Shown: positions 26,200 through 37,417 of the stretch, in pieces
How the letters are laid out: the number at the start of each line of letters is the position of its first letter
How positions within the stretch are numbered: position 1 is the first letter of the stretch
Made by a program: the position numbers and the translations under genes
DNA from: Vulcanimicrobiota bacterium
Lineage (GTDB): Bacteria; Vulcanimicrobiota; Vulcanimicrobiia; Vulcanimicrobiales; Vulcanimicrobiaceae
DNA length: 41,031 bases
Assembly: GCA_027364935.1 (NCBI GenBank)
Contig: DAHXOK010000008.1
Location: 11,853-52,883, forward strand
Direction of reading: 5' to 3'
The notes under the pieces: generated by a model
The model's database searches: none
Told to the model about the DNA's origin: nothing
What the model saw: only the letters and a program-made list of their open reading frames with translations

Positions 26200-29100
26200 A
26201 TGCAGCGCATCGCTGGCCGCCTCGTCTTCTCCGCCTCGGATCTTAACGGTTTCCTGGAGTGCGAAGCCCTTGCGCAGTTCGAGCGCGAGGCGGCGGAGCG
26301 TCTGCGCGTCCGTCCGGAGCCAGACGAGACGGCGCGACTGCTCGCGCGTAAAGGCGACGAGCACGAGCGCAGGTACCTCGACTCGCTTCGCTCGAGCGGC
26401 TTAGACGTGTGCGAGATCCGCCACGGAGAGCGCCTCGACGCGCAAGAGCTACACGAAGCAGAGCGCGCGACAGCCGCCGCGATGGAGAACGGCGCCGCCG
26501 TCATCTACCAGGCCACGTTCTTCGACGGCACGTTCATGGGCCATGCGGACTTTCTTCGCCGCGTCGAGAGCCCGTGCGCGCGGTGGCCGTGGAGCTACGA
26601 GGTCCTCGACACCAAGCTCGCTTTGACAACCAAGACCTACTTTCTCGTGCAACTCTGCAACTACAGCGAGCACGTCGCACGCTTGCAGGGCACCATGCCG
26701 CAGCGCATCGTGGTCGTTCCCGGCAACAACGTCGAAGCGTCGTACGACCTCGCCACCTATCTCGCGTACTACCGCCATTTGAAGGCAGCCTTTCTCGAGC
26801 GCGTGAACGGCGGGCGCAACGGCGCCTATCCACACGAAGTCTCGCACTGCAGGGTCTGCCGCTGGAACCCGATCTGCGACGCGCGCCGCGAAGCGGACGA
26901 TTACCTCGGGCTCGTCGCGTGGATGCGCCGCGACGACATCCGCCGGCTCTCCGGCAGCGGCATCGCGACGATCGCGCAGCTCGCTCGCGCCGGCGAGGCG
27001 ATGCGCCCCAGCGGCATGACGCCTGAGACGTTCGAGCGCCTCCGCGAACAGGCGAACCTTCAGCACGAGCAGCGTACGACCGGAGTGCTGCGTTACGAAC
27101 TACTTGCCTTGCAGCCGTCACGCGGCTTCGCGCTCCTGCCTGCGCCGGACGAGGGCGATCTCTTCTTCGATATGGAAGGCGATCCGCTCTACACGCCGCA
27201 GCGCGGGCTCGAGTATCTCTTCGGCGTCCATCTCGCGAAGGAGCAACGGTACGTCGCCTACTGGGCGAAGAGCGCTCGCGACGAGCGTTCGGCGTTCGAA
27301 GCGCTCGTCGACCTCCTCGCGCGCCGCCGCGCCGAGTATCCGAACATGCACGTTTACCACTACGCGCCGTACGAGACGACGGCGCTCAAGCGGCTCGCAG
27401 GTTTCTATGCGACGCGTGAAGAGGAGCTGGACACCCTGCTCCGAGCGCAGTCCTTCGTCGACCTGTACGCCGTCGTACGGCAAGGCTTGCGCATCTCGCA
27501 GCCGTCGTATTCGATCAAGAAACTCGAGCCGTTCTACGGCTTCGCCCGCGAAACCAAGACCCAACGCGGCGACGACTCCATTCTCATGTTCGAATCGTGG
27601 CTGATCGACAACGACGACAACATCCTCGTCGACATCGAGAACTACAATCGCGACGACTGTCTCTCCACGCAACGTCTTCGCGACTGGCTGCTCGAGCGCA
27701 GAGCCGAGCTCGTCGCACGCGGCGGTGACTTTCCATGGAAGGCGCCGCCCGAACCGCACGAGGAGGCCGCGGAGCAAGAGAGCGACGAGCGCGCGCAGCT
27801 TCGCGACGCGCTCCTGGCCGGGCTCGAGGCGCCGCAAAGCGTCGCCGTCTTGCGCGACGCCGATGAGCGCTTTCGCGCGCGCTGGCTGCTCGGACACTTG
27901 CTCGACTATCACCGTCGCGACGATAAGCCGGCCTGGTGGGCGTACTACTATCGGTGCGAGAATCAAGATGAACTCGTCGAGTTCGACCGCAAGGCGATCG
28001 GCAGCCTTCGCTATCGCAGCGACGTCCCGCCCTACCGGCTGACGCCCAAACAGAACCCCGTGTACGTCTTCTCCTTTCCGGATCAGCTCCATGGCTTCGA
28101 GGCCGGCGACGGCGCGTACGTGCTCGATGCGGCACGCCCACACGAAGCGGGAACGATCGTCGGCGTCGACGACGACGTGCTCGAAATCCACGTAAAGCTC
28201 CGTGGGGGAGTTGAGCCTGCGGATCTGGACGCGCTCGCGCCGGTGCCCACCATCAACGCGACCCTGTTGCGCGATAGCCTGCAACGTGTCGCACGCACGT
28301 ATCTCGACGGAGAGCTGGAGCGGCGCCATCCCGCCCTCGTCGACGTGCTCCTTCGGCGCTTGCCGCGATTACGCGGTGAGGCTCCGGGGCAGCGCTTGCA
28401 GCCAGAGATTCCCGACGCAGCGTCGATCGCTACGATTGCGCAACGCCTCGACGGCAGCTACCTTTTCGTGCAAGGCCCTCCGGGAAGTGGAAAGAGCACG
28501 ACCGGTGCCGGCGTCGTGCTCGACTTGCTCGGTTCGGGCAAGCGCGTCGCGATTCTCGCTAACTCGCATAAGGTGATCCACAACCTGCTTCACAAAATCG
28601 AAGAGCAAGCGATTCACCGCGGGCAGAGCTTTCGCGGCATTCAGCGCTACAGCAAGACCACCGAGGGTTCTCGCTTTGAATCCAAGCTGCCGGAATCGTT
28701 CATCGCTCCCTCGCTCGCTACCGACGCACTGTCCGAGCCGCACGACCTGGCGGCAGGCACGGCCTGGAGCTTCGCCCGCGAGGAGCTAACCGGCGCGTAC
28801 GATTATCTCGTCATCGACGAGGCGGGGCAGGTCTCGCTCGCCAACGCGATCGCCTGCGCTCCCTGCGCGCACAACGTCATTCTCCTCGGCGATCCTCTGC
28901 AGCTAGCGCAGGTCTCGCAGGGCGCGCACCCGCCCGGCGTCGAGCTCTCGGTACTCGCGCACTTGCTCGGTGACGACACGACCGTTCCGCCGGAGCGCGG
29001 CGTGTTTCTCGACCATTCGCATCGGATGCATCCGCAGATTTGCGCGTTCATCTCGGAGAGCGTCTATGCGGGCCGTCTGCGAGCGAGCGAGGCGACGCGC

Positions 29101-29643
29101 TGCAATCGCGTGGATTCCGAGGGAGTGTGCGGGAGCGGTCTGCGGTATCTGCCGATCGCGCACGAAGGGAATCGGCGCGAGTCGCGTGAGGAAGCCGAGG
29201 CTATCGTACGCGAGATCGCCGGGCTTCTTCAAGGAACGCTCGCGGTCGCGACGCTCGAAGACCCGACGCCCCAGCCGCGGTCCTTCACGCAACACGACGT
29301 GCTCGTCGTCTCACCGTACAATGCGCAGCGCCGCCTCATCGGGCAACGGTTGGCCGACGCCGGACTGCACGGCGTCGCCGTCGGAACCGTCGACAAATTT
29401 CAGGGTCAGGAAGCTCCGGTCGTCTTCTATTCGATGGCGACCTCCAGCGGCGACGAGATCCCGCGCGACATCGGCTTTCTTTTCGAAAAGAATCGCCTCA
29501 ACGTCGCGATCTCGCGCGCGCAATGTGTGAGCGTGCTCGTCTGCTCGCCGCGTCTGCTCGACACGCGCTGTTCTACGCCGGAACAGATGGCGCTCGTAAA
29601 CCTGCTTTGCAGATATGCAGAAGTGGCTTCGGCAATCTCGTAG
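26200..29643 (+). CDS. TM0106-family RecB-like nuclease fused to RNase H-like domain and SF1 helicase
   Basis: A 1147-residue DNA-processing protein. The N-terminal PD-(D/E)XK nuclease has GHADFL (Asp117), LDTKLA (Asp137, Lys139) and QLCNYSEH, plus four cysteines in Cas4/AddB layout (Cys21, then Cys217, Cys220 and Cys226 in HCRVCRWNPICD) that probably hold a 4Fe-4S cluster. Residues 320-530 are a YprB-type RNase H-like domain (LFFDMEGDPLY; YNRDDCLSTQRL). The C-terminal half is a DNA2/NAM7-type SF1 helicase: Walker A GPPGSGKS (759-766), DEAG (873-876), LLGDPLQLAQVSQG, VSPYNAQRRLIG, VDKFQGQEAPVV and NVAISRAQ. It probably works in repair or recombination end-processing; the biological role of the family is not established. 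It is monocistronic and divergent from the signalling island. Confidence 0.93.
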   Translation: MQRIAGRLVFSASDLNGFLECEALAQFEREAAERLRVRPEPDETARLLARKGDEHERRYLDSLRSSGLDVCEIRHGERLDAQELHEAERATAAAMENGAAVIYQATFFDGTFMGHADFLRRVESPCARWPWSYEVLDTKLALTTKTYFLVQLCNYSEHVARLQGTMPQRIVVVPGNNVEASYDLATYLAYYRHLKAAFLERVNGGRNGAYPHEVSHCRVCRWNPICDARREADDYLGLVAWMRRDDIRRLSGSGIATIAQLARAGEAMRPSGMTPETFERLREQANLQHEQRTTGVLRYELLALQPSRGFALLPAPDEGDLFFDMEGDPLYTPQRGLEYLFGVHLAKEQRYVAYWAKSARDERSAFEALVDLLARRRAEYPNMHVYHYAPYETTALKRLAGFYATREEELDTLLRAQSFVDLYAVVRQGLRISQPSYSIKKLEPFYGFARETKTQRGDDSILMFESWLIDNDDNILVDIENYNRDDCLSTQRLRDWLLERRAELVARGGDFPWKAPPEPHEEAAEQESDERAQLRDALLAGLEAPQSVAVLRDADERFRARWLLGHLLDYHRRDDKPAWWAYYYRCENQDELVEFDRKAIGSLRYRSDVPPYRLTPKQNPVYVFSFPDQLHGFEAGDGAYVLDAARPHEAGTIVGVDDDVLEIHVKLRGGVEPADLDALAPVPTINATLLRDSLQRVARTYLDGELERRHPALVDVLLRRLPRLRGEAPGQRLQPEIPDAASIATIAQRLDGSYLFVQGPPGSGKSTTGAGVVLDLLGSGKRVAILANSHKVIHNLLHKIEEQAIHRGQSFRGIQRYSKTTEGSRFESKLPESFIAPSLATDALSEPHDLAAGTAWSFAREELTGAYDYLVIDEAGQVSLANAIACAPCAHNVILLGDPLQLAQVSQGAHPPGVELSVLAHLLGDDTTVPPERGVFLDHSHRMHPQICAFISESVYAGRLRASEATRCNRVDSEGVCGSGLRYLPIAHEGNRRESREEAEAIVREIAGLLQGTLAVATLEDPTPQPRSFTQHDVLVVSPYNAQRRLIGQRLADAGLHGVAVGTVDKFQGQEAPVVFYSMATSSGDEIPRDIGFLFEKNRLNVAISRAQCVSVLVCSPRLLDTRCSTPEQMALVNLLCRYAEVASAIS

Positions 29644-30549: not shown

Positions 30550-33500
30550 CTACAGGCTTAGTGGAACAGCCGTCGTCGCCGAAACGTCGATTTCATCTTC
30601 ACCGCCGTCGGCGCTTTCGTCTTCAGGTCCCGCGTTTGGATCGTCACCAGCCTTCGTTCCCCCCAATGCAGGCTTGACCCCTAGCTGCGTCAATACCTCA
30701 TCCCTGACCTTGTAGCCGATGTCGTCCTCCGCGCTTACTGAGGTTCCTACAGACGCAGGAAGGCTCGATCGCTCACCGTTACGTTCAGCGAACGCAGCCG
30801 GATCCATCACTTGATGAAGTGCGTGAACTAACTCCGCCGCCAAATCTGCTACCAGCTCAGCTCGGCTGGCTGTCGCGCCTGACGTCAGGCCGATAGTGAT
30901 GTGACCGTAGAGGTCCCCGTTCGTCAATTGCCCAGCTGGAACCGTAACAGACTCGCACCCCTGACAGCTCTTGATATTGCTACGTATGTAGACAACTGCT
31001 ATCTTTGTCGAACCGTTCTTACCGATGTGATTCTCTACACCTAGGGCGATCTTCCTAAAGAGTGCGCTGTGCTTCAATCCCCAGGTCCATGCATTCGTTA
31101 AACTTGTGGGGATATTGATCGGATTATATCCAGTAGGATCTGAATATGCCTCAGGATTGCTTCCGTTCCACATGTAGGATTTCTGCGATGCGGGGTTGTC
31201 GACAGTGCCGGCGTAGGCGTCGGGGGTCGTCCACGTACCAGCGTTGGAGTCGTACGTGCGCACGCCTTGGATTGTGTCGGTGCCGTCAGTCAGACCGTCG
31301 GTCCGCGGCATGCCCAGCACGCCGCCGTTGCCGATGGGGTTGCTTGCCGGGCCCAGCGCTTTGGGAGCGCCCCACCAGTTGATCGAGGTCGGCATGTTGC
31401 TCGCGGCGTTGCACGGCGATCGCTCAAACGCTCCGAATCTCGTATCGAACGTGTACGAGTTCGACAAGCCGGCAAAGGTCGCGCCAGAGGCGTTGTGGCA
31501 GCCCATCACGCCGCCTGCCGGATCCCGATCGTAAAACGTCAGGCCCTTGTAGCCCGGGTCCAGCGGTAGAACGTCGCCTTGCGCACCGACCTTGATGTCG
31601 TCGAGCTGTCCCGAGGAGTTCGTGGTGAAGAGCAGCATGCCGCCGTCCCAGTGCAGCGTGTCGTACTGCGGGGAATCGCCAAGTTTCAAAGTCGATCCCA
31701 CCATGATGGGATGCCCATTCGGGCCCCAGAGCAAGCTGTTCCCCGACGGCTGGCCAGTGCCGTAATCCATCGGCCCTGAGAGAAGCGTATGATTCTCCGC
31801 ATCGTAAGTCCGACTGACAGTCGTGTCGTCGGTTGGATCGCCGTTGCTGTCGCAGCACGAGTACTGGCTGTCGGTCGTCAGGCGACCTGCGGCGTCGTAG
31901 ATCATGCCCGAACTCGCGTTTGAATTGCCCGAGGTCCAGTTTGTTCCCAGCGCGATGCCCATGCGGCCATCCCAGGTAACTTGCAGCGTGCCGGTGCGTT
32001 GTGCTCCCTGTATTTGCACGCCGTTGGCGTACCGGCTAGACGAAGTGAGGGAAGATCCCGGCCATGATGTCAGTTCACCACGTACCGAGTACGTGTATCG
32101 CGCGGGCACGTTACTCGCAGGTGTCATGACGCCGAGAACCTCGCCCTGCGCGCCATATTCAAAACTCGAGAGGGTGGCGCCTGGGATCGTCTCCGCGCTC
32201 TCCTGGCCGTAGGCGTTATGGGTCATCGTGACCGACGTACCGTTGGCCGCGGCGCCGCTCTCGCTACGCTGCGTCATCCTGCCCGCAGCTGTGTACGTGT
32301 ACGAAAGCGTCGTCGTTCCAGCGTTGACGATTCCCGCAACGCTCGCATCATCGATTGCCTGCGTCTGCAGCCGCCCGTCGGGACGGTAGGAGTAGGCGAA
32401 GAGGCTTGCCTGCGTCAGGGCCGAGGAGCTGACGTCGAGGCTCTCCTGCGTGCCGTCGGCATAATAATGGTGGGTGAGCAACGCGGGCGAAGTAGTTCCG
32501 CCGCCGCTGGGGTCCTGACTCGTACTTAAACGCCCATCCGCATCGTACGTATAGCTCTGCGCTCCGAATACCGACGAGGTGACCGACATCACGCGACCGT
32601 CGGGATCGTATAGCATCGTGCGCCACGGGGTTGAGTCGCTGAACTGGACCGCCGTTGCCGAGCCACGCGAGTCGTATAAGAAGTCCTGGCATTGCGCGAG
32701 TTGATTGCGGTCAGAAGTGAGGAGGCCGAGGCGGGTTGGGTCGGCATCGTAGGTGAGCGACTCGGTGTTCAGCGCATCGGCCTGGGTATTGCTGTTGTAG
32801 ACCAAGGAGTACTTCGCCGTCGGGCGATCGAGGTTATCGAAAGCCGTGCCCTTGAGGTCTTGATAGACGGTGTTCGGGATCGGTGAGGGTGTCGGCTGCG
32901 GCGGCCAACTCGTGTACGTCACCGTCTGCGTCCCCGAGCCCTGCGGCAGCAACTCCACGGTTTTGTACAAGTTCCCGTGCGCGGCGATGCTCTGTCCGTC
33001 GAAAGTAATGGAACCGATGCCACCGTTCTGCGAGAGATCGTAGAGATAGCGCGTGACCCAAGGATTCGTGTACGAGTCATTCGCGGAATCGTACGGCTGC
33101 TCGACCTCCACGAGCCGGTCGTCGGCGTCGTAGAACTTCTGCGTGACACCTTGTGTGGTCGGCAGCGTCGGCGAGCCGTTCTGCACATACGTTCCGCCGT
33201 GTACGGCGGTCTGCGTGAGCACGTCACCGTCCGCATCATACGTGAAGGCGCTTGCGTAGATGCCGGGTGGTGATGCCGCGCAACCCGATGCGTTGCCGTC
33301 GAGCGCGTGCTGGTAGGAGGACTCACTGTAGTGCGTGCTGCCGTCGGCGTAGTAGCAGACGTAGGAGTACACGCCGTCGGGGTCTTCGCGCGTAAGCACG
33401 CGGTTCAGGCTGTCGTACGCGAGACGCCAGCTGCCGTTGCCGGGATTGTACGTCTGCACGTTGCCGTAGCTGTCGTAGGTGAAACTCTGCGTTGGCGTGC

Positions 33501-35880
33501 GCTGTGTGCCGTCGGCCTGCGTCATCGTGTCGCCCACGACCGAGAGCGGCATCCCGTTCTGATCGTACGAAAGATGGTGGTGATACCCGAGCGGCATGTA
33601 CGTGTCGGTGAGCTGTCCGTAGATCTCCGGCGCGGAGCCCGTTGCCCACACGTAGTGCACAACGCCGCTAGGACTGCCCGTGCAGGGATTGCTTCCGTTT
33701 GGATAGTCGCCGTTGTGCTGGTGCGCCCAGTTCGGATCGCAGTAGTAGAGCAGATTATTGTACTGGTCGTACTGATACCACGCCGTCGGCTGGAACGTCC
33801 CCATCGAGGTCGTCACCTGCGGCTGCGCCTCCATGACCGCGTTCCCGCTACCGTCATAGGCAAAGGTCGATTCGTAATCGCGCTCGTCGGTGAAGGCGAT
33901 CAGGTTATCGTTACTATCCCACTGCTCGTAGGAGACCAGCCACTGGCTGCCGGTCCACTCCTGCGTCATCGTCACGCGCCACAGGCCGTCGAAGGTCCAC
34001 ATCCGCGAATGCCCGTCGGAATCGCTCACGGTGGTGACGCCGGAGCCGTAGCCGGAGAAGCTCTCCGTGTACCAGCTCTGCAACCCGGTCGGATAGCCGC
34101 TCTGCAACACCCCTTGACTCCCCAGTCCGGGGCTCACGCCGTCTTGCGGCGTGAAGTTCACCACGCCGTCGTCGGTCATCGACGTTGCACGGCGGCTGCC
34201 ATCGAAGGCGAAGTTCACGGTGTCGCCCTCTTGCGCCGTGCCGTGCGCGCGTTGGCTCACGGTATAGCGCGGTGAGTTCGCGCTTGCGATCAGGTAGCCG
34301 GCGTTATACGTGTACGTCTCCGGAATGCAGGCCGTGTTGGTGCTGCTGCACGTCTGCGCCGAGGTCGTCGCGTTGCCCGGACGGTCGACTTCGGTCAGAT
34401 CGCCCGTGCTGTCGTACTCGTAGGAGATCGTCGAGCCGTCCGGACGCGCGATCGACTGGAGTTCATCGGGGCCCGTACCGTTGAGCAGGCCGAAGGTCAA
34501 GGTAACTGACTGCCCGTCGCTATGCGCCACGACAATTTGCGTGAGGTTCTCGGGATTGCTCGCATCGCCGTTCGCCCACGAGTAGGTGAAGGTCAGGCTG
34601 TTGTTGACGTTACGGCCTTGAATGGCGAGAATGCGCCCCGACAACCCTGCCGCGATCTGTGTCCCGCAGCTTGAGGGCTGATTCGGCGCCTCGAAGTAGT
34701 AGGCGGTGCCCGTTTTCTTCGTCCAGTAGTAGCCGCAGGCTCCGTCACTCGTGAGCGTGGTGTAGTCGTTCTCGCCTGCGTTGCCGCAGGCGTTCCATTG
34801 CCCTTGGCCGTTTGCGCAGAAATCGTAACGCGCACCATCGATGTCGTAGACGGAGATGATGTTGTACGTCGCGTTATAGGCGAGGTGCGCATCGAACGTG
34901 TTCGTCCAGCCGTTGCCGAAGACCGACGGCGTCGACCCGTCGGTATTGCTCGCATCATGCTGGCTTTGCGAGTTGTAGGTGCGCCGGAACGCGAGATCGA
35001 TGCCCCGCTCCGGAATATCCAGGTCATCAACTTGGACCAGCAGGTTGCCGTTGCCGACGTTGACCATCGCCTTGCCGATGCCGGGTAATGGCTCTTGCTC
35101 GTAGGTCCAATAATGGTTGATGCCGGTGGTCGAGGGAGAAAGTCCCGGTGTCGGCTGGGGCGTTGGGGTGGCGGTGACGCAGTTGGGCGGAATGCCGCTG
35201 TCGCCCGGCGGACATGGCGTCGGCACGGGCGTCGGCGTTGGGATCGGGGTAGGCGTCGGTGTGGGTGTCGGGCTGGGAGTTGGACTCGGCGTTGCCGTAG
35301 GCGGCGGCGTGATGCAGCCATTCAGGCCACAGTACATCGGCGAAACGTGTGAGCCCGGCGCAGGGCTTGCGGTGTTCTCGATCATCGGATGTACGCCTGT
35401 GAGCGCGAACCGGCCGCGCGCGTTCCAGCGCGGAGCAACAACAAAACCCTGCGACCGCGGCTGCGTTGCTGTTCCGGGAGCCGAGCTGCGGCGCAGCGCA
35501 AGCGGATCGCGCGGCGCCTTGCGCGGATCGATCGCCTCGGGTCGATGCAATCCGGGAACCCGAGCGACACTACCGTAGCGCCGTACGAGGCGCGCGTTGC
35601 GCCAGCGACTGGCACTCGGCGGCCGCGCGATGCGAATCACGCGCGGAAAGGAGGGGGCCGGCGCGTGCATCGCCTCGTAGCGACCCATCTGCCCCGTGAG
35701 CATCGCATGCGTTGCCGAGTTCAACCAGGCGTTACGCAGCGGCGTCATGACCGCAGCGGCAAAGATGCCGCCAACGGTAGCAACGACGTTAGCGGGCGAA
35801 CCGCTTGCTGCAAGCGCACTCGCTCCCGAACTTTGCGCGAGCAGAACGATGAACAACACGCCGGCGATGATGCGTCGCAT
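30550..35880 (-). CDS. Sec-exported Rhs/YD-repeat protein with variable C-terminal domain
   Basis: A 1776-residue protein. The ATG at 35880 was chosen for its AGGAGAGG site and because it places a signal peptide at the N-terminus (RRIIAGVLFIVLLAQ). After an Arg/Pro-rich region come a Thr/Pro linker (about 192-248), a DUF6531-like start (VDDLDIPERGIDLAFRRTYN), and many YD repeats forming an Rhs shell. The core ends with the hallmark YSDPTGYNP. The last 193 residues are unrelated to the core and less GC-rich, as in swappable Rhs toxin domains. They contain DLAAELVHALHQVMD, like the helix of M91-type zincins (HELxHALH) but with Ala for the first His, and EDDIGYKVRDE further on. The C-terminus is acidic. 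Toxin function is inferred. Confidence 0.9.
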   Translation of the reverse strand: MRRIIAGVLFIVLLAQSSGASALAASGSPANVVATVGGIFAAAVMTPLRNAWLNSATHAMLTGQMGRYEAMHAPAPSFPRVIRIARPPSASRWRNARLVRRYGSVARVPGLHRPEAIDPRKAPRDPLALRRSSAPGTATQPRSQGFVVAPRWNARGRFALTGVHPMIENTASPAPGSHVSPMYCGLNGCITPPPTATPSPTPSPTPTPTPTPIPTPTPVPTPCPPGDSGIPPNCVTATPTPQPTPGLSPSTTGINHYWTYEQEPLPGIGKAMVNVGNGNLLVQVDDLDIPERGIDLAFRRTYNSQSQHDASNTDGSTPSVFGNGWTNTFDAHLAYNATYNIISVYDIDGARYDFCANGQGQWNACGNAGENDYTTLTSDGACGYYWTKKTGTAYYFEAPNQPSSCGTQIAAGLSGRILAIQGRNVNNSLTFTYSWANGDASNPENLTQIVVAHSDGQSVTLTFGLLNGTGPDELQSIARPDGSTISYEYDSTGDLTEVDRPGNATTSAQTCSSTNTACIPETYTYNAGYLIASANSPRYTVSQRAHGTAQEGDTVNFAFDGSRRATSMTDDGVVNFTPQDGVSPGLGSQGVLQSGYPTGLQSWYTESFSGYGSGVTTVSDSDGHSRMWTFDGLWRVTMTQEWTGSQWLVSYEQWDSNDNLIAFTDERDYESTFAYDGSGNAVMEAQPQVTTSMGTFQPTAWYQYDQYNNLLYYCDPNWAHQHNGDYPNGSNPCTGSPSGVVHYVWATGSAPEIYGQLTDTYMPLGYHHHLSYDQNGMPLSVVGDTMTQADGTQRTPTQSFTYDSYGNVQTYNPGNGSWRLAYDSLNRVLTREDPDGVYSYVCYYADGSTHYSESSYQHALDGNASGCAASPPGIYASAFTYDADGDVLTQTAVHGGTYVQNGSPTLPTTQGVTQKFYDADDRLVEVEQPYDSANDSYTNPWVTRYLYDLSQNGGIGSITFDGQSIAAHGNLYKTVELLPQGSGTQTVTYTSWPPQPTPSPIPNTVYQDLKGTAFDNLDRPTAKYSLVYNSNTQADALNTESLTYDADPTRLGLLTSDRNQLAQCQDFLYDSRGSATAVQFSDSTPWRTMLYDPDGRVMSVTSSVFGAQSYTYDADGRLSTSQDPSGGGTTSPALLTHHYYADGTQESLDVSSSALTQASLFAYSYRPDGRLQTQAIDDASVAGIVNAGTTTLSYTYTAAGRMTQRSESGAAANGTSVTMTHNAYGQESAETIPGATLSSFEYGAQGEVLGVMTPASNVPARYTYSVRGELTSWPGSSLTSSSRYANGVQIQGAQRTGTLQVTWDGRMGIALGTNWTSGNSNASSGMIYDAAGRLTTDSQYSCCDSNGDPTDDTTVSRTYDAENHTLLSGPMDYGTGQPSGNSLLWGPNGHPIMVGSTLKLGDSPQYDTLHWDGGMLLFTTNSSGQLDDIKVGAQGDVLPLDPGYKGLTFYDRDPAGGVMGCHNASGATFAGLSNSYTFDTRFGAFERSPCNAASNMPTSINWWGAPKALGPASNPIGNGGVLGMPRTDGLTDGTDTIQGVRTYDSNAGTWTTPDAYAGTVDNPASQKSYMWNGSNPEAYSDPTGYNPINIPTSLTNAWTWGLKHSALFRKIALGVENHIGKNGSTKIAVVYIRSNIKSCQGCESVTVPAGQLTNGDLYGHITIGLTSGATASRAELVADLAAELVHALHQVMDPAAFAERNGERSSLPASVGTSVSAEDDIGYKVRDEVLTQLGVKPALGGTKAGDDPNAGPEDESADGGEDEIDVSATTAVPLSL
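35216..35307 (-). repeat. Low-complexity Pro-Thr linker repeat inside Rhs gene
   Basis: About 90 bases of short imperfect GGTGTCGG-like units encode alternating Thr-Pro and Ser-Pro dipeptides between the Rhs N-terminal region and the YD shell. The unit is short and irregular with no spacers, so it is a coding microsatellite-like tract that could vary in length. Confidence 0.7.
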
Positions 35881-35921: not shown

Positions 35922-35951
35922 ACTATACGGCGCTCGGCCGCCATCGCGCAA
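35922..35951 (-). promoter_or_regulatory. Candidate Rhs promoter
   Basis: TTGCGC (35951-35946) and TATAGT (35927-35922) are separated by 18 bases on the minus strand. They lie about 42 bases before the Rhs ATG, leaving a leader of about 35 bases that carries the AGGAGAGG site. The fit to a housekeeping promoter is fair. Confidence 0.5.
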
Positions 35952-35969
35952 ATCAAGAAAGGTGGTCCA

Positions 35970-36010
35970 GATACCACCCGATACCATGAGAGCGCCATGA
36001 GATACCATGA
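35970..36010. repeat. Four-unit tandem 10-11 bp array upstream of Rhs promoter
   Basis: The contiguous units are GATACCACCC, GATACCATGA, GAGCGCCATGA and GATACCATGA. Two units are identical and the others share either the left (GATACCA) or right (CCATGA) part. The array lies 19 bp upstream of the Rhs -35 and 24 bp from the stop of the HTH gene. The period equals one helical turn, so protein monomers would bind on one face, as excisionases and some activators do. Confidence 0.6.
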
Positions 36011-36034
36011 CGTACTACCGGATGCGTTCAGATT

Positions 36035-36247
36035 CTACGAAACGAGATCTCTTGCGGACTCGATCAGCTCGTCCAAGGCTGCCTTCGGGATGAGGATGCA
36101 GCGGCCGAACCGCGTGTGTGGGATTCTCCCCTGATGGAGCGCCTTATCAAACGTCTTGCGTGACATGCGCAGGTAGCGCGCTGCTTCGTCGGGTTTCATG
36201 ATCTCGGGCCACTCGCCATTCGACGGTATGATCTTGCCGTTTCTCAT
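36035..36247 (-). CDS. Excisionase/MerR-like helix-turn-helix protein (70 aa)
   Basis: A 70-residue DNA-binding protein of the excisionase-type HTH_17 family: MKPDEAARYLRMSRKTFDKA is the winged-helix start, then LHQGRIPHTRFGRCILIP and the C-terminal helix KAALDELIESA. The ATG at 36247 overlaps the lipoprotein stop as ATGA, so it is read from the same mRNA as that gene. It precedes the Rhs gene on the same strand, with the tandem repeat array in between. In mobile elements such proteins control excision; elsewhere they act as small transcription factors. No integrase gene is visible in the window, so a regulatory role at the array is the simpler reading. Confidence 0.85.
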   Translation of the reverse strand: MRNGKIIPSNGEWPEIMKPDEAARYLRMSRKTFDKALHQGRIPHTRFGRCILIPKAALDELIESARDLVS

Positions 36248-36909
36248 GGCTGCACGACCAGCACGTCGCGGTAGCTCGTGATCGTGTTGTAGTAGTCCAG
36301 ATCGCCGAAGTAGTAGGTGCCTGCGTGTAATGTGAAGGCTTGCGAGAAGCAGAGTTGCCCGTTCTGCGCCGGCGGGATGCGCCCGGTGGACCAAAACGGC
36401 TGCGCGCTGCTGCCGATAACCGTGTTCGTCGCGGTTGCAGCGTTCGCGGGAAAAGTGTAGGGCTCACTCGGAAATGCGTGGCCCGAGAACGCGACTGCGG
36501 AGTGGTAGATCGTATCGGTCCCTAGCTCGATGTTGGTGAACTGCACGGTATCGCTCGCGGTAATGGCTGCGCCTGAGGAAGTCTTGCTAATAACCTGTGC
36601 CAGATCGGGAAGATCGGTACCATTGAAGACCGCATACCCCGCTATCGCGCCGTAGGTCGGATCGGTGACCGTGGTGACCTCGCTGCCGATGCCGATCAGT
36701 ACGACATTCGGATTGATACTCGGCACGGTGTTGCACGCTCCGGGTGCAATCGTTGGGGTTGCGCTCGGCGACGGCGAGGGTACGACTCCGCCACCGGAGA
36801 GGTTCGCGCAACCTGCGAGGAGCGCCGCGATGGCGAGCGTGGCAATGCAAAGGAGTTGCCCTTCGACTTCGCGCTCTGCGCTACGCCCAGGGTGACAACG
36901 TCGGTTCAT
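36244..36909 (-). CDS. Lipoprotein, possibly cupredoxin-like
   Basis: A 221-residue lipoprotein. The signal sequence GQLLCIATLAIAALLAGC ends at Cys34 after an atypically long polar N-terminus that lies in a dispersed-repeat-like sequence. A Pro/Ser-rich linker (VVPSPSPSATPTIAP) follows, then a beta-rich domain: DTVQFTNIELGTDTIYHSAV, FTLHAGTYYFGDLDYYNT and YRDVLVVQP. The pattern of a strand with His followed by a late HAGTYYF strand recalls cupredoxins, but the full copper ligand set (two His, Cys, Met) is not obvious, so the fold is tentative. It overlaps both neighbours by four bases: the Ig-like fragment upstream and the HTH gene downstream. Confidence 0.7.
   Translation of the reverse strand: MNRRCHPGRSAEREVEGQLLCIATLAIAALLAGCANLSGGGVVPSPSPSATPTIAPGACNTVPSINPNVVLIGIGSEVTTVTDPTYGAIAGYAVFNGTDLPDLAQVISKTSSGAAITASDTVQFTNIELGTDTIYHSAVAFSGHAFPSEPYTFPANAATATNTVIGSSAQPFWSTGRIPPAQNGQLCFSQAFTLHAGTYYFGDLDYYNTITSYRDVLVVQP
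36858..36898 (-). repeat. Dispersed-repeat-like sequence in the lipoprotein 5' end
   Basis: Read on the minus strand the segment begins GTCACCCTGGGCGTAGCG and ends GAAGTCGAAGGGC. This layout (CACCCTG-x-GCGTAGCG then GTCGAAGG) is familiar from short intergenic repeats found in many copies in other high-GC genomes. Here it encodes residues CHPGRSAEREVEG before the lipoprotein signal. No second full copy was found in the window. Confidence 0.45.
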
Positions 36910-37175
36910 TGCCGCACCACCGAGAGCGGAATCGGCACGGAGACGGTCGCGCCCATCGCGTTGGACGCGGTCAAGCTCATCTGCACGTTGCCTTGCGCGG
37001 TCGGGCCGGCATCGAACGCGAAGGTCGCCTGCCACTTACCCGGGGCGATCGAGGTAAGCTCCGCCTCCGGCGTAACCGCATTCGGGCCGAAGACGAGTTT
37101 CGCCACGTTGGTCGTCGTGATCGCGGAGATCGTGATCTGCCCTCCGGGCGCGACCACCGTCGGCGATACTTGCAC
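36906..37175 (-). CDS. Ig-like beta-sandwich fragment, probably 5'-truncated
   Basis: An 89-residue frame from a GTG at 37175, with no ribosome-binding site. MQVSPTVVAPGGQITISAIT, GKWQATFAFDAGPTAQGNVQ and SVPIPLSVVRQ look like one bacterial Ig/FN3-type domain from an exported protein. There is no signal peptide, and the frame stays open upstream without a start codon, so it is likely the 3' remnant of a longer exported protein. Its stop overlaps the lipoprotein start (ATGA), which suggests it was once part of the same operon. Confidence 0.5.
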   Translation of the reverse strand: MQVSPTVVAPGGQITISAITTTNVAKLVFGPNAVTPEAELTSIAPGKWQATFAFDAGPTAQGNVQMSLTASNAMGATVSVPIPLSVVRQ

Positions 37176-37417
37176 GTAGAAGCAGTGAAGGCGTTCGTCC
37201 GCGAGGAGCTGCGCGCGTTGACTCCGCTGGAGCGCCTGACTGCATTACTCGACCGAACCTCACTGGCGCTTATCGCCGGCCCGCATGAGGACGCCGATGA
37301 CGCGAGCGCCTCTTGTCGAAAACGCGGCCGAAGACCCGGCTTGACGTTCCACCGCCGCCGGTCCGACAGTGGCACCGCACGCTGGGTTTTGCTCGGCTCC
37401 GACGAACTTCGGCCCTC

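What the first reader, a model, noticed from the sequence alone, without database searches (positions are those of the whole stretch)
35922..36247. Helically phased 10-bp array between an excisionase-like gene and the Rhs promoter
Four contiguous 10/10/11/10-bp units occur just upstream of the Rhs -35, directly next to a gene for a small HTH_17 protein. Excisionase-type proteins bind direct repeats cooperatively along one DNA face. With no integrase nearby, the pair looks like a dedicated on/off switch for a secreted Rhs protein, which would be unusual control for this family.
Basis: partly seen in the sequence, partly recalled or inferred. Interest (0 to 1): 0.6.

Follow-up and report, generated by a model that had tools for sequence, protein, structure and literature searches.

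The report
Small regulator with ten-base operator array
Just in front of a gene for a large secreted Rhs protein in an uncultured bacterium sits a row of about seven ten-base repeats next to a gene for a tiny DNA-binding protein, and relatives keep the pair but with different repeat letters, which suggests a matched switch that has been swapped or re-tuned during evolution.

Summary
The 10-bp array runs about 70 bp (36034-35964, about seven units), directly from the stop codon of the 70-aa HTH_17 gene towards the Rhs gene. On its own it is only modestly significant (lag-10 p 0.004; 0.07 over all lags). The comparative test carries the case. Of 44 usable Rhs loci only these three have the HTH, and they are three of the four with a lag-10 array; the fourth lies in a GC-rich stretch that reads as coding. 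No tyrosine integrase lies on any of the five contigs holding this HTH subfamily. Between window and G007 the HTH gene and array are replaced together between conserved flanks. Best reading: a BldC/Apl-like protein polymerising head-to-tail on direct repeats to control Rhs. Binding, sign of regulation and signal are untested. The terminator-like hairpin and the -35 are not supported. In passing: secretin genes sit beside many Eremiobacterota Rhs genes (21 of 48).

The parts
35964..36034 (-). Array of about seven ~10-bp head-to-tail units (one 11-bp step), starting at the base after the HTH stop codon
   Evidence: lag-10 self-match 21/40, best of lags 5-20; core seen by the repeat finder
36035..36247 (-). 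70-aa HTH_17 / TIGR01764 'excisionase family' DNA-binding protein (P0001)
   Evidence: A2-profile relatives
36244..36909 (-). Lipoprotein-like gene (lipobox-like LLAGC read by eye); its TGA overlaps the HTH ATG by 4 bp
   Evidence: relatives in 11 of 60 genomes
36906..37187 (-). C-terminal remnant matching the end of the secretin that precedes the lipoprotein gene in G007; the TGA of its ORF 36906-37175 overlaps the lipoprotein ATG
   Evidence: 58.5% identity over 94 aa, 36912-37187; the G007 copy is a full secretin
30550..35880 (-). Rhs gene, 1776 aa: signal peptide read by eye, Pro/Thr-rich linker, DUF6531, RHS repeat, variable C-terminal tip from about residue 1590
35922..35927 (-). -10-like TATAGT of the Rhs gene; G007 has TATACT at the aligned place
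   Evidence: no promoter called by the scanner
35960..35979 (-). Terminator-like hairpin GGGTGGT...ACCACCT plus T-rich tail overlapping the last units; not conserved, no better than chance
   Evidence: (2 found, 1.6 expected)

Best explanation
The 70-aa protein is a dedicated local DNA-binding regulator of the BldC/Apl working type. It is made with the upstream lipoprotein from one operon and binds the direct repeats just past its own gene, one protomer per helical turn, head to tail and cooperatively along one face. The resulting protein-DNA filament abuts the Rhs promoter and sets whether Rhs is transcribed. Shown here: the gene, the array, their joint presence at three Rhs loci of the genus, their joint divergence, and the absence of a tyrosine integrase on the contigs. 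Inferred from relatives in print: cooperative head-to-tail binding. Guessed: the sign; the position just upstream of the promoter favours activation over occlusion, about 60:40. The inducing signal is unknown.
For: Orthologous Rhs loci G007 and G003 keep HTH and array in the same place: G007 23/40 (p 0.002 for lag 10; 0.024 any lag), G003 31/40 (p 0.0002 both), against window 21/40. G006, cut by the contig end 37 bp after the HTH coding frame, shows two 10-bp units there: 14 of 27 lag-10 matches, 61 of 5000 shuffles as good. Of 44 usable Rhs loci, 3 have an HTH_17 ORF within 1500 bp upstream and all 3 have lag 10 as best of lags 7-16 with at least 21/40; of the other 41, 1 does (L191), in a GC-rich stretch that I read as coding. 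Own arithmetic: 3 of 3 against 1 of 41, hypergeometric 3e-4; leaving the window out, 3e-3. Among 111 HTH_17 genes of the phylum with 150 bp or more downstream, lag-10 mean 15.4 sd 2.8; 5 reach 21, and only the three Rhs-linked ones do so with lag 10 above the other lags compared (lags 9, 12, 15 set aside). Unit sequences are not alike between species (all six pairwise tests p 0.34 or more) and the HTHs differ too (51, 24, 33, 21% identity to the window's). DNA identity window/G007 is 0.88 at the lipoprotein end, 0.32-0.60 across HTH-array-promoter, 0.78 at the Rhs start. No PF00589 place on C150 (0 of 6 in the genome) or on the four relatives' contigs (0 of 30). [quoted passage not shown]
Against: The window's own array is weak by itself (p 0.07 over lags 5-20) and has an 11-bp step. 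Only three complete cases, all one genus, all fragmented assemblies. In G005 the same HTH subfamily follows the lipoprotein tail but the next gene is another lipoprotein-like one and there is no array. G007's HTH is below Pfam's HTH_17 cut-off (19.9 vs 27 bits) and G005's gives no Pfam match. G003's contig ends about 150 bp upstream of the HTH domain, next to what I read as a deoC fragment, and may be chimeric. Fold searches of the single-sequence model give BldC, Xis and RdfS only with non-significant scores.
Confidence: 0.6

Rival explanations
1. Relic of an integrated element: HTH is or was an excisionase and the array its arm sites; the Rhs gene is just the neighbour.
For: TIGR01764 and PHROG 'excisionase and transcriptional regulator' matches; arrays one turn apart are typical of recombination directionality factors. 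In the same genome three other HTH_17 hits share a contig with an integrase, two of them within 2.2 kb (C73, C33) and one about 9 kb off (C80).
Against: No tyrosine integrase on any of five contigs; HTH start overlaps the lipoprotein stop in 4 of 4 readable loci; same place and same neighbours in several species, both flanks conserved.
Confidence: 0.15
2. Array is a binding site for another factor or acts as a roadblock/terminator between the lipoprotein-HTH operon and Rhs, and the HTH acts elsewhere.
For: Last units overlap a terminator-like hairpin; another Rhs gene without an HTH carries a 13-bp array instead (L031).
Against: Hairpin is at chance level (2 found, 1.6 expected) and absent in G007; 10-bp arrays track the HTH gene, not Rhs genes in general.
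Confidence: 0.15
3. Chance or decaying low-information repeats with no function.
For: Window array alone p 0.07 over all lags; 3 such places per 41 kb at lag 10.
Against: Lag 10 is the best lag at all three loci with different letters each time, and 0 of 5000 shuffles match G003.
Confidence: 0.1

Closest known systems
BldC of Streptomyces (MerR-like, 68 residues; PMC5859096, passages read)
   Same: About 70-aa single winged-HTH protein of the HTH_17 type; direct repeats in varying number, about one per helical turn; acts on promoters without an integrase.
   Different: BldC is a pleiotropic developmental regulator with AATTXXXX(C) sites of 9 bp per protomer; here one local array, other sequence, gene embedded in a lipoprotein-Rhs locus. 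Binding not shown.
Apl of phage 186 / Cox-Xis recombination directionality factors (PMC7498355, passages read)
   Same: Seven direct repeats with 10-11 bp spacing near promoters; excisionase-type protein that also regulates transcription.
   Different: No integrase or attachment site found; no phage context.
RdfS of ICEMlSymR7A and Pukovnik Xis (PMC11963761, passages read)
   Same: HTH 17 grouped, filament-forming; Pukovnik Xis (4j2n) is the credible PDB sequence match, E 0.011 (the lower-E 8vd6 match looks compositional to me).
   Different: Excision factors of mobile elements; RdfS has no consensus site.

Membership tests
BldC family | Small protein consisting of one winged HTH of the HTH_17/MerR-like type | tested here: met
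   70 aa, PF12728 residues 17-65, E 6e-13; AF2 model has helices and strands in a wHTH-like order, pLDDT 80.6
BldC family | Direct repeats about one helical turn apart next to a promoter | tested here: met
   for three loci; spacing 10 bp; the promoter itself is only -10-like
BldC family | Structural match to BldC | tested here: inconclusive
   6ama ranks 2nd by Foldseek but E 0.93; VIA Z 2.3
BldC family | Head-to-tail cooperative DNA binding, monomer in solution | not testable with these tools
   needs protein
Recombination directionality factors (Xis/Apl/Cox) | Excisionase-family DNA-binding domain | tested here: met
   TIGR01764 51.6 bits, cut-off 28.8; phrog_66 E 9e-7
Recombination directionality factors (Xis/Apl/Cox) | Companion integrase nearby | tested here: not met
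   tyrosine family PF00589 only: 0 of 6 places on C150; 0 of 30 on the relatives' contigs C14, C72, C12, C225; serine recombinases not searched
Recombination directionality factors (Xis/Apl/Cox) | Attachment sites flanking an element | not tested
   no element boundaries were looked for

The most novel reading that the evidence does not exclude
HTH gene and array form one exchangeable regulator-operator cassette, like a phage immunity region but with a direct-repeat filament protein, which is swapped between conserved flanks at a secretin-lipoprotein-Rhs secretion locus so that each lineage runs its Rhs protein under its own private specificity.
Probability: 0.3. Interest if true: 0.65.

Novelty: new variant of a known kind. 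Interest (0 to 1): 0.5.

Why it matters
If true, excisionase-like HTH_17 proteins, usually annotated as mobile-element factors, include dedicated promoter regulators with readable, self-adjacent operator arrays. Three species with three different arrays and proteins give a natural test of how such a protein's recognition helix sets its repeat sequence, and a handle on how Rhs proteins of an uncultured phylum are switched on.

Tried and rejected
Terminator reading: the hairpin 35979-35960 looked persuasive, but it is at chance level, folds only z -1.2 and has no counterpart in G007; G003 has one at another place.

Second array elsewhere in the genome: C55:20044 (L166) has 2 mismatches but reads as coding sequence and lag 10 is not its best lag.

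Common unit motif across species (GGT or ATCT cores by eye): no pair of unit profiles is more alike than column permutations.

General rule that HTH_17 genes carry 10-bp arrays upstream: only a weak excess, 5 of 115 at 23/40 or more for lag 10 against 0-3 for the other lags 5-23; not pursued.

Phage or plasmid origin of the HTH: one weak phage hit (38.5% over 52 aa), none in plasmids.

Structure: single-sequence AF2 model; Foldseek best E 0.46, VIA best Z 2.8 with unrelated regulators, so no fold claim is made.

Rows dropped in the Rhs count: one search listed 53 rows, two of them second pieces of one gene, so 51 places; three not fetched (G086:C134, G123:C4, G123:C67); of 48 distinct places in 50 loci, L186 gave no tblastn hit, L187 and L189 no start, L207 has a masked run of N, L221 and L222 duplicate others: 44 used. 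Some loci had under 330 bp upstream (L190: 110 bp). Some start choices by the script are doubtful, for example L034.

Full report
What was checked. The window is contig C150, 11853-52883, of an unnamed 2.24-Mb assembly (161 contigs, 85.8% complete). Of six relatives of the lipoprotein-like gene found in titled records, four are titled Candidatus Eremiobacterota; G007's Rhs contig is probably JAKAPO010000023.1 (same length, 15142 bases), titled only 'bacterium isolate YF1.bin71'. On the - strand the order is: C-terminal remnant of a secretin (36906-37187), lipoprotein-like gene (36244-36909), HTH gene (36035-36247), array (36034-35964), Rhs gene (35880-30550). Each upstream gene's stop overlaps the next start by four bases (ATGA) up to the HTH.

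The array. Lag 10 is the best lag among 5-20, 21 of 40 matches; lag-10 p 0.004, any-lag p 0.07. The window has three places as good at lag 10, so the window alone would not convince.

The comparative test. G007 (75% identity to the Rhs N-terminus) and G003 (63%) have an HTH gene upstream of Rhs and, between the two genes, eight in-phase 10-bp units (G007, the first including the stop codon) and seven (G003): 23/40 and 31/40 at lag 10. G006's contig ends 37 bp after the HTH frame and shows two units there. Unit consensus: window nATCTnnTnG, G007 GnAnnnTnGC, G003 GATCnAGnCn; no pair is alike beyond chance.

Controls. Rhs genes without HTH: of 44 usable Rhs loci (from a search that rang in 30 of 149 genomes), 41 have no HTH_17 ORF within 1500 bp upstream (less where the contig ends), and 1 of these 41 reaches 21/40 at lag 10 with lag 10 on top (L191, in a GC-rich stretch that reads as coding). 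HTH genes without Rhs: 111 HTH_17 genes with 150 bp or more downstream average 15.4 (sd 2.8); five reach 21, of which the two that are not Rhs-linked have another lag as strong. Profile A2 separates five genus members (E 6e-25 or better) from the rest (4.6e-12 or worse), but four of those five built the profile.

Against the reading. G005 has the lipoprotein tail and the HTH but another lipoprotein-like gene next and no array. G041, of another family, has lipoprotein-like and Rhs genes as neighbours at three places, and no HTH_17 ORF was found upstream of those Rhs genes. So the HTH-array unit is an addition within one genus, not part of the core locus. Numbers are small and the assemblies are fragmented.

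Joint replacement. Window against G007: identity 0.88 at 36241-36300, 0.60 at the first 60 bp of the HTH gene, 0.32-0.52 through the rest of HTH, array and promoter region, 0.78 from the Rhs start. HTH identity is 24% while the lipoprotein is 71% and the Rhs N-terminus 75%. That fits either exchange of the HTH-array unit or fast joint change; the data do not separate them.

Not an excision module by the features tested. None of 6 tyrosine-integrase places in the genome is on C150, while C73 and C33 carry an HTH_17 hit within 2.2 kb of one, and C80 one about 9 kb off; none of 30 places in the four relatives is on the contigs concerned. Serine recombinases were not searched.

How it probably works. 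By analogy with BldC, Apl and RdfS (passages read), protomers line up head to tail, one per turn, and act cooperatively. The array ends about 36 bp upstream of TATAGT, so a filament would sit against polymerase at the Rhs promoter. Activation is my preference on position alone. The HTH is probably made with the lipoprotein, so Rhs output may follow the activity of that operon. These steps are inference.

Rhs protein. 1776 aa with signal peptide (by eye), DUF6531 and RHS repeat; similarity to G003 and G004 ends at residues 1586 and 1590, so the last 190 or so residues are a variable tip, as in polymorphic Rhs proteins (recalled).

Novelty. Paper searches: 'Eremiobacterota' with 'Rhs' gave one paper, a list of names; at least two of 'Rhs', 'excisionase', 'BldC' gave 17 papers, and in the ten listed none had a title or abstract start on this; 'secretin', 'RHS repeat', 'lipoprotein', 'helix-turn-helix' (three of four) gave 78, ten listed, none on such a locus by title. 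Only listings were seen. The parts are of known kinds; the placing and the species-specific arrays are the new variant.

Noticed in passing
window 36906-37187; L229 2436-4937; 21 of 48 distinct Rhs loci: Secretin genes (PF00263, Secretin_N) lie beside Rhs genes in many Eremiobacterota: tblastn hits at E 1e-4 or better in 21 of 48 fetched Rhs places, a lower bound because flanks were short; in G007 secretin, lipoprotein, HTH and Rhs are in a row. Suggests a dedicated outer-membrane exit for these Rhs proteins.
   Followed up: partly
L031 upstream of Rhs (G036:C13): An Rhs gene without an HTH carries a different array, four or five 13-bp units of the type TTTTGATAATCAC (lag-13 self-match 32/40).
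   Followed up: no
L127, L154, L144: Other HTH_17 genes in the phylum have clear 10-bp arrays upstream of their own start, e.g. TGTCACAAAG- and AGGCTTAGCC-type units: possibly autoregulatory sites.
   Followed up: partly
L059: In G005 the same HTH subfamily follows a lipoprotein tail but precedes another lipoprotein-like gene, with no intergenic gap and no array.
   Followed up: partly
window 27226-27313 (+): ARAGORN calls a tRNA-Ser with anticodon ACT inside the 26200-29643 reading frame; probably a false positive.
   Followed up: no
window 30550-31110: C-terminal tip of the Rhs protein differs from G003 and G004 after about residue 1590.
   Followed up: partly
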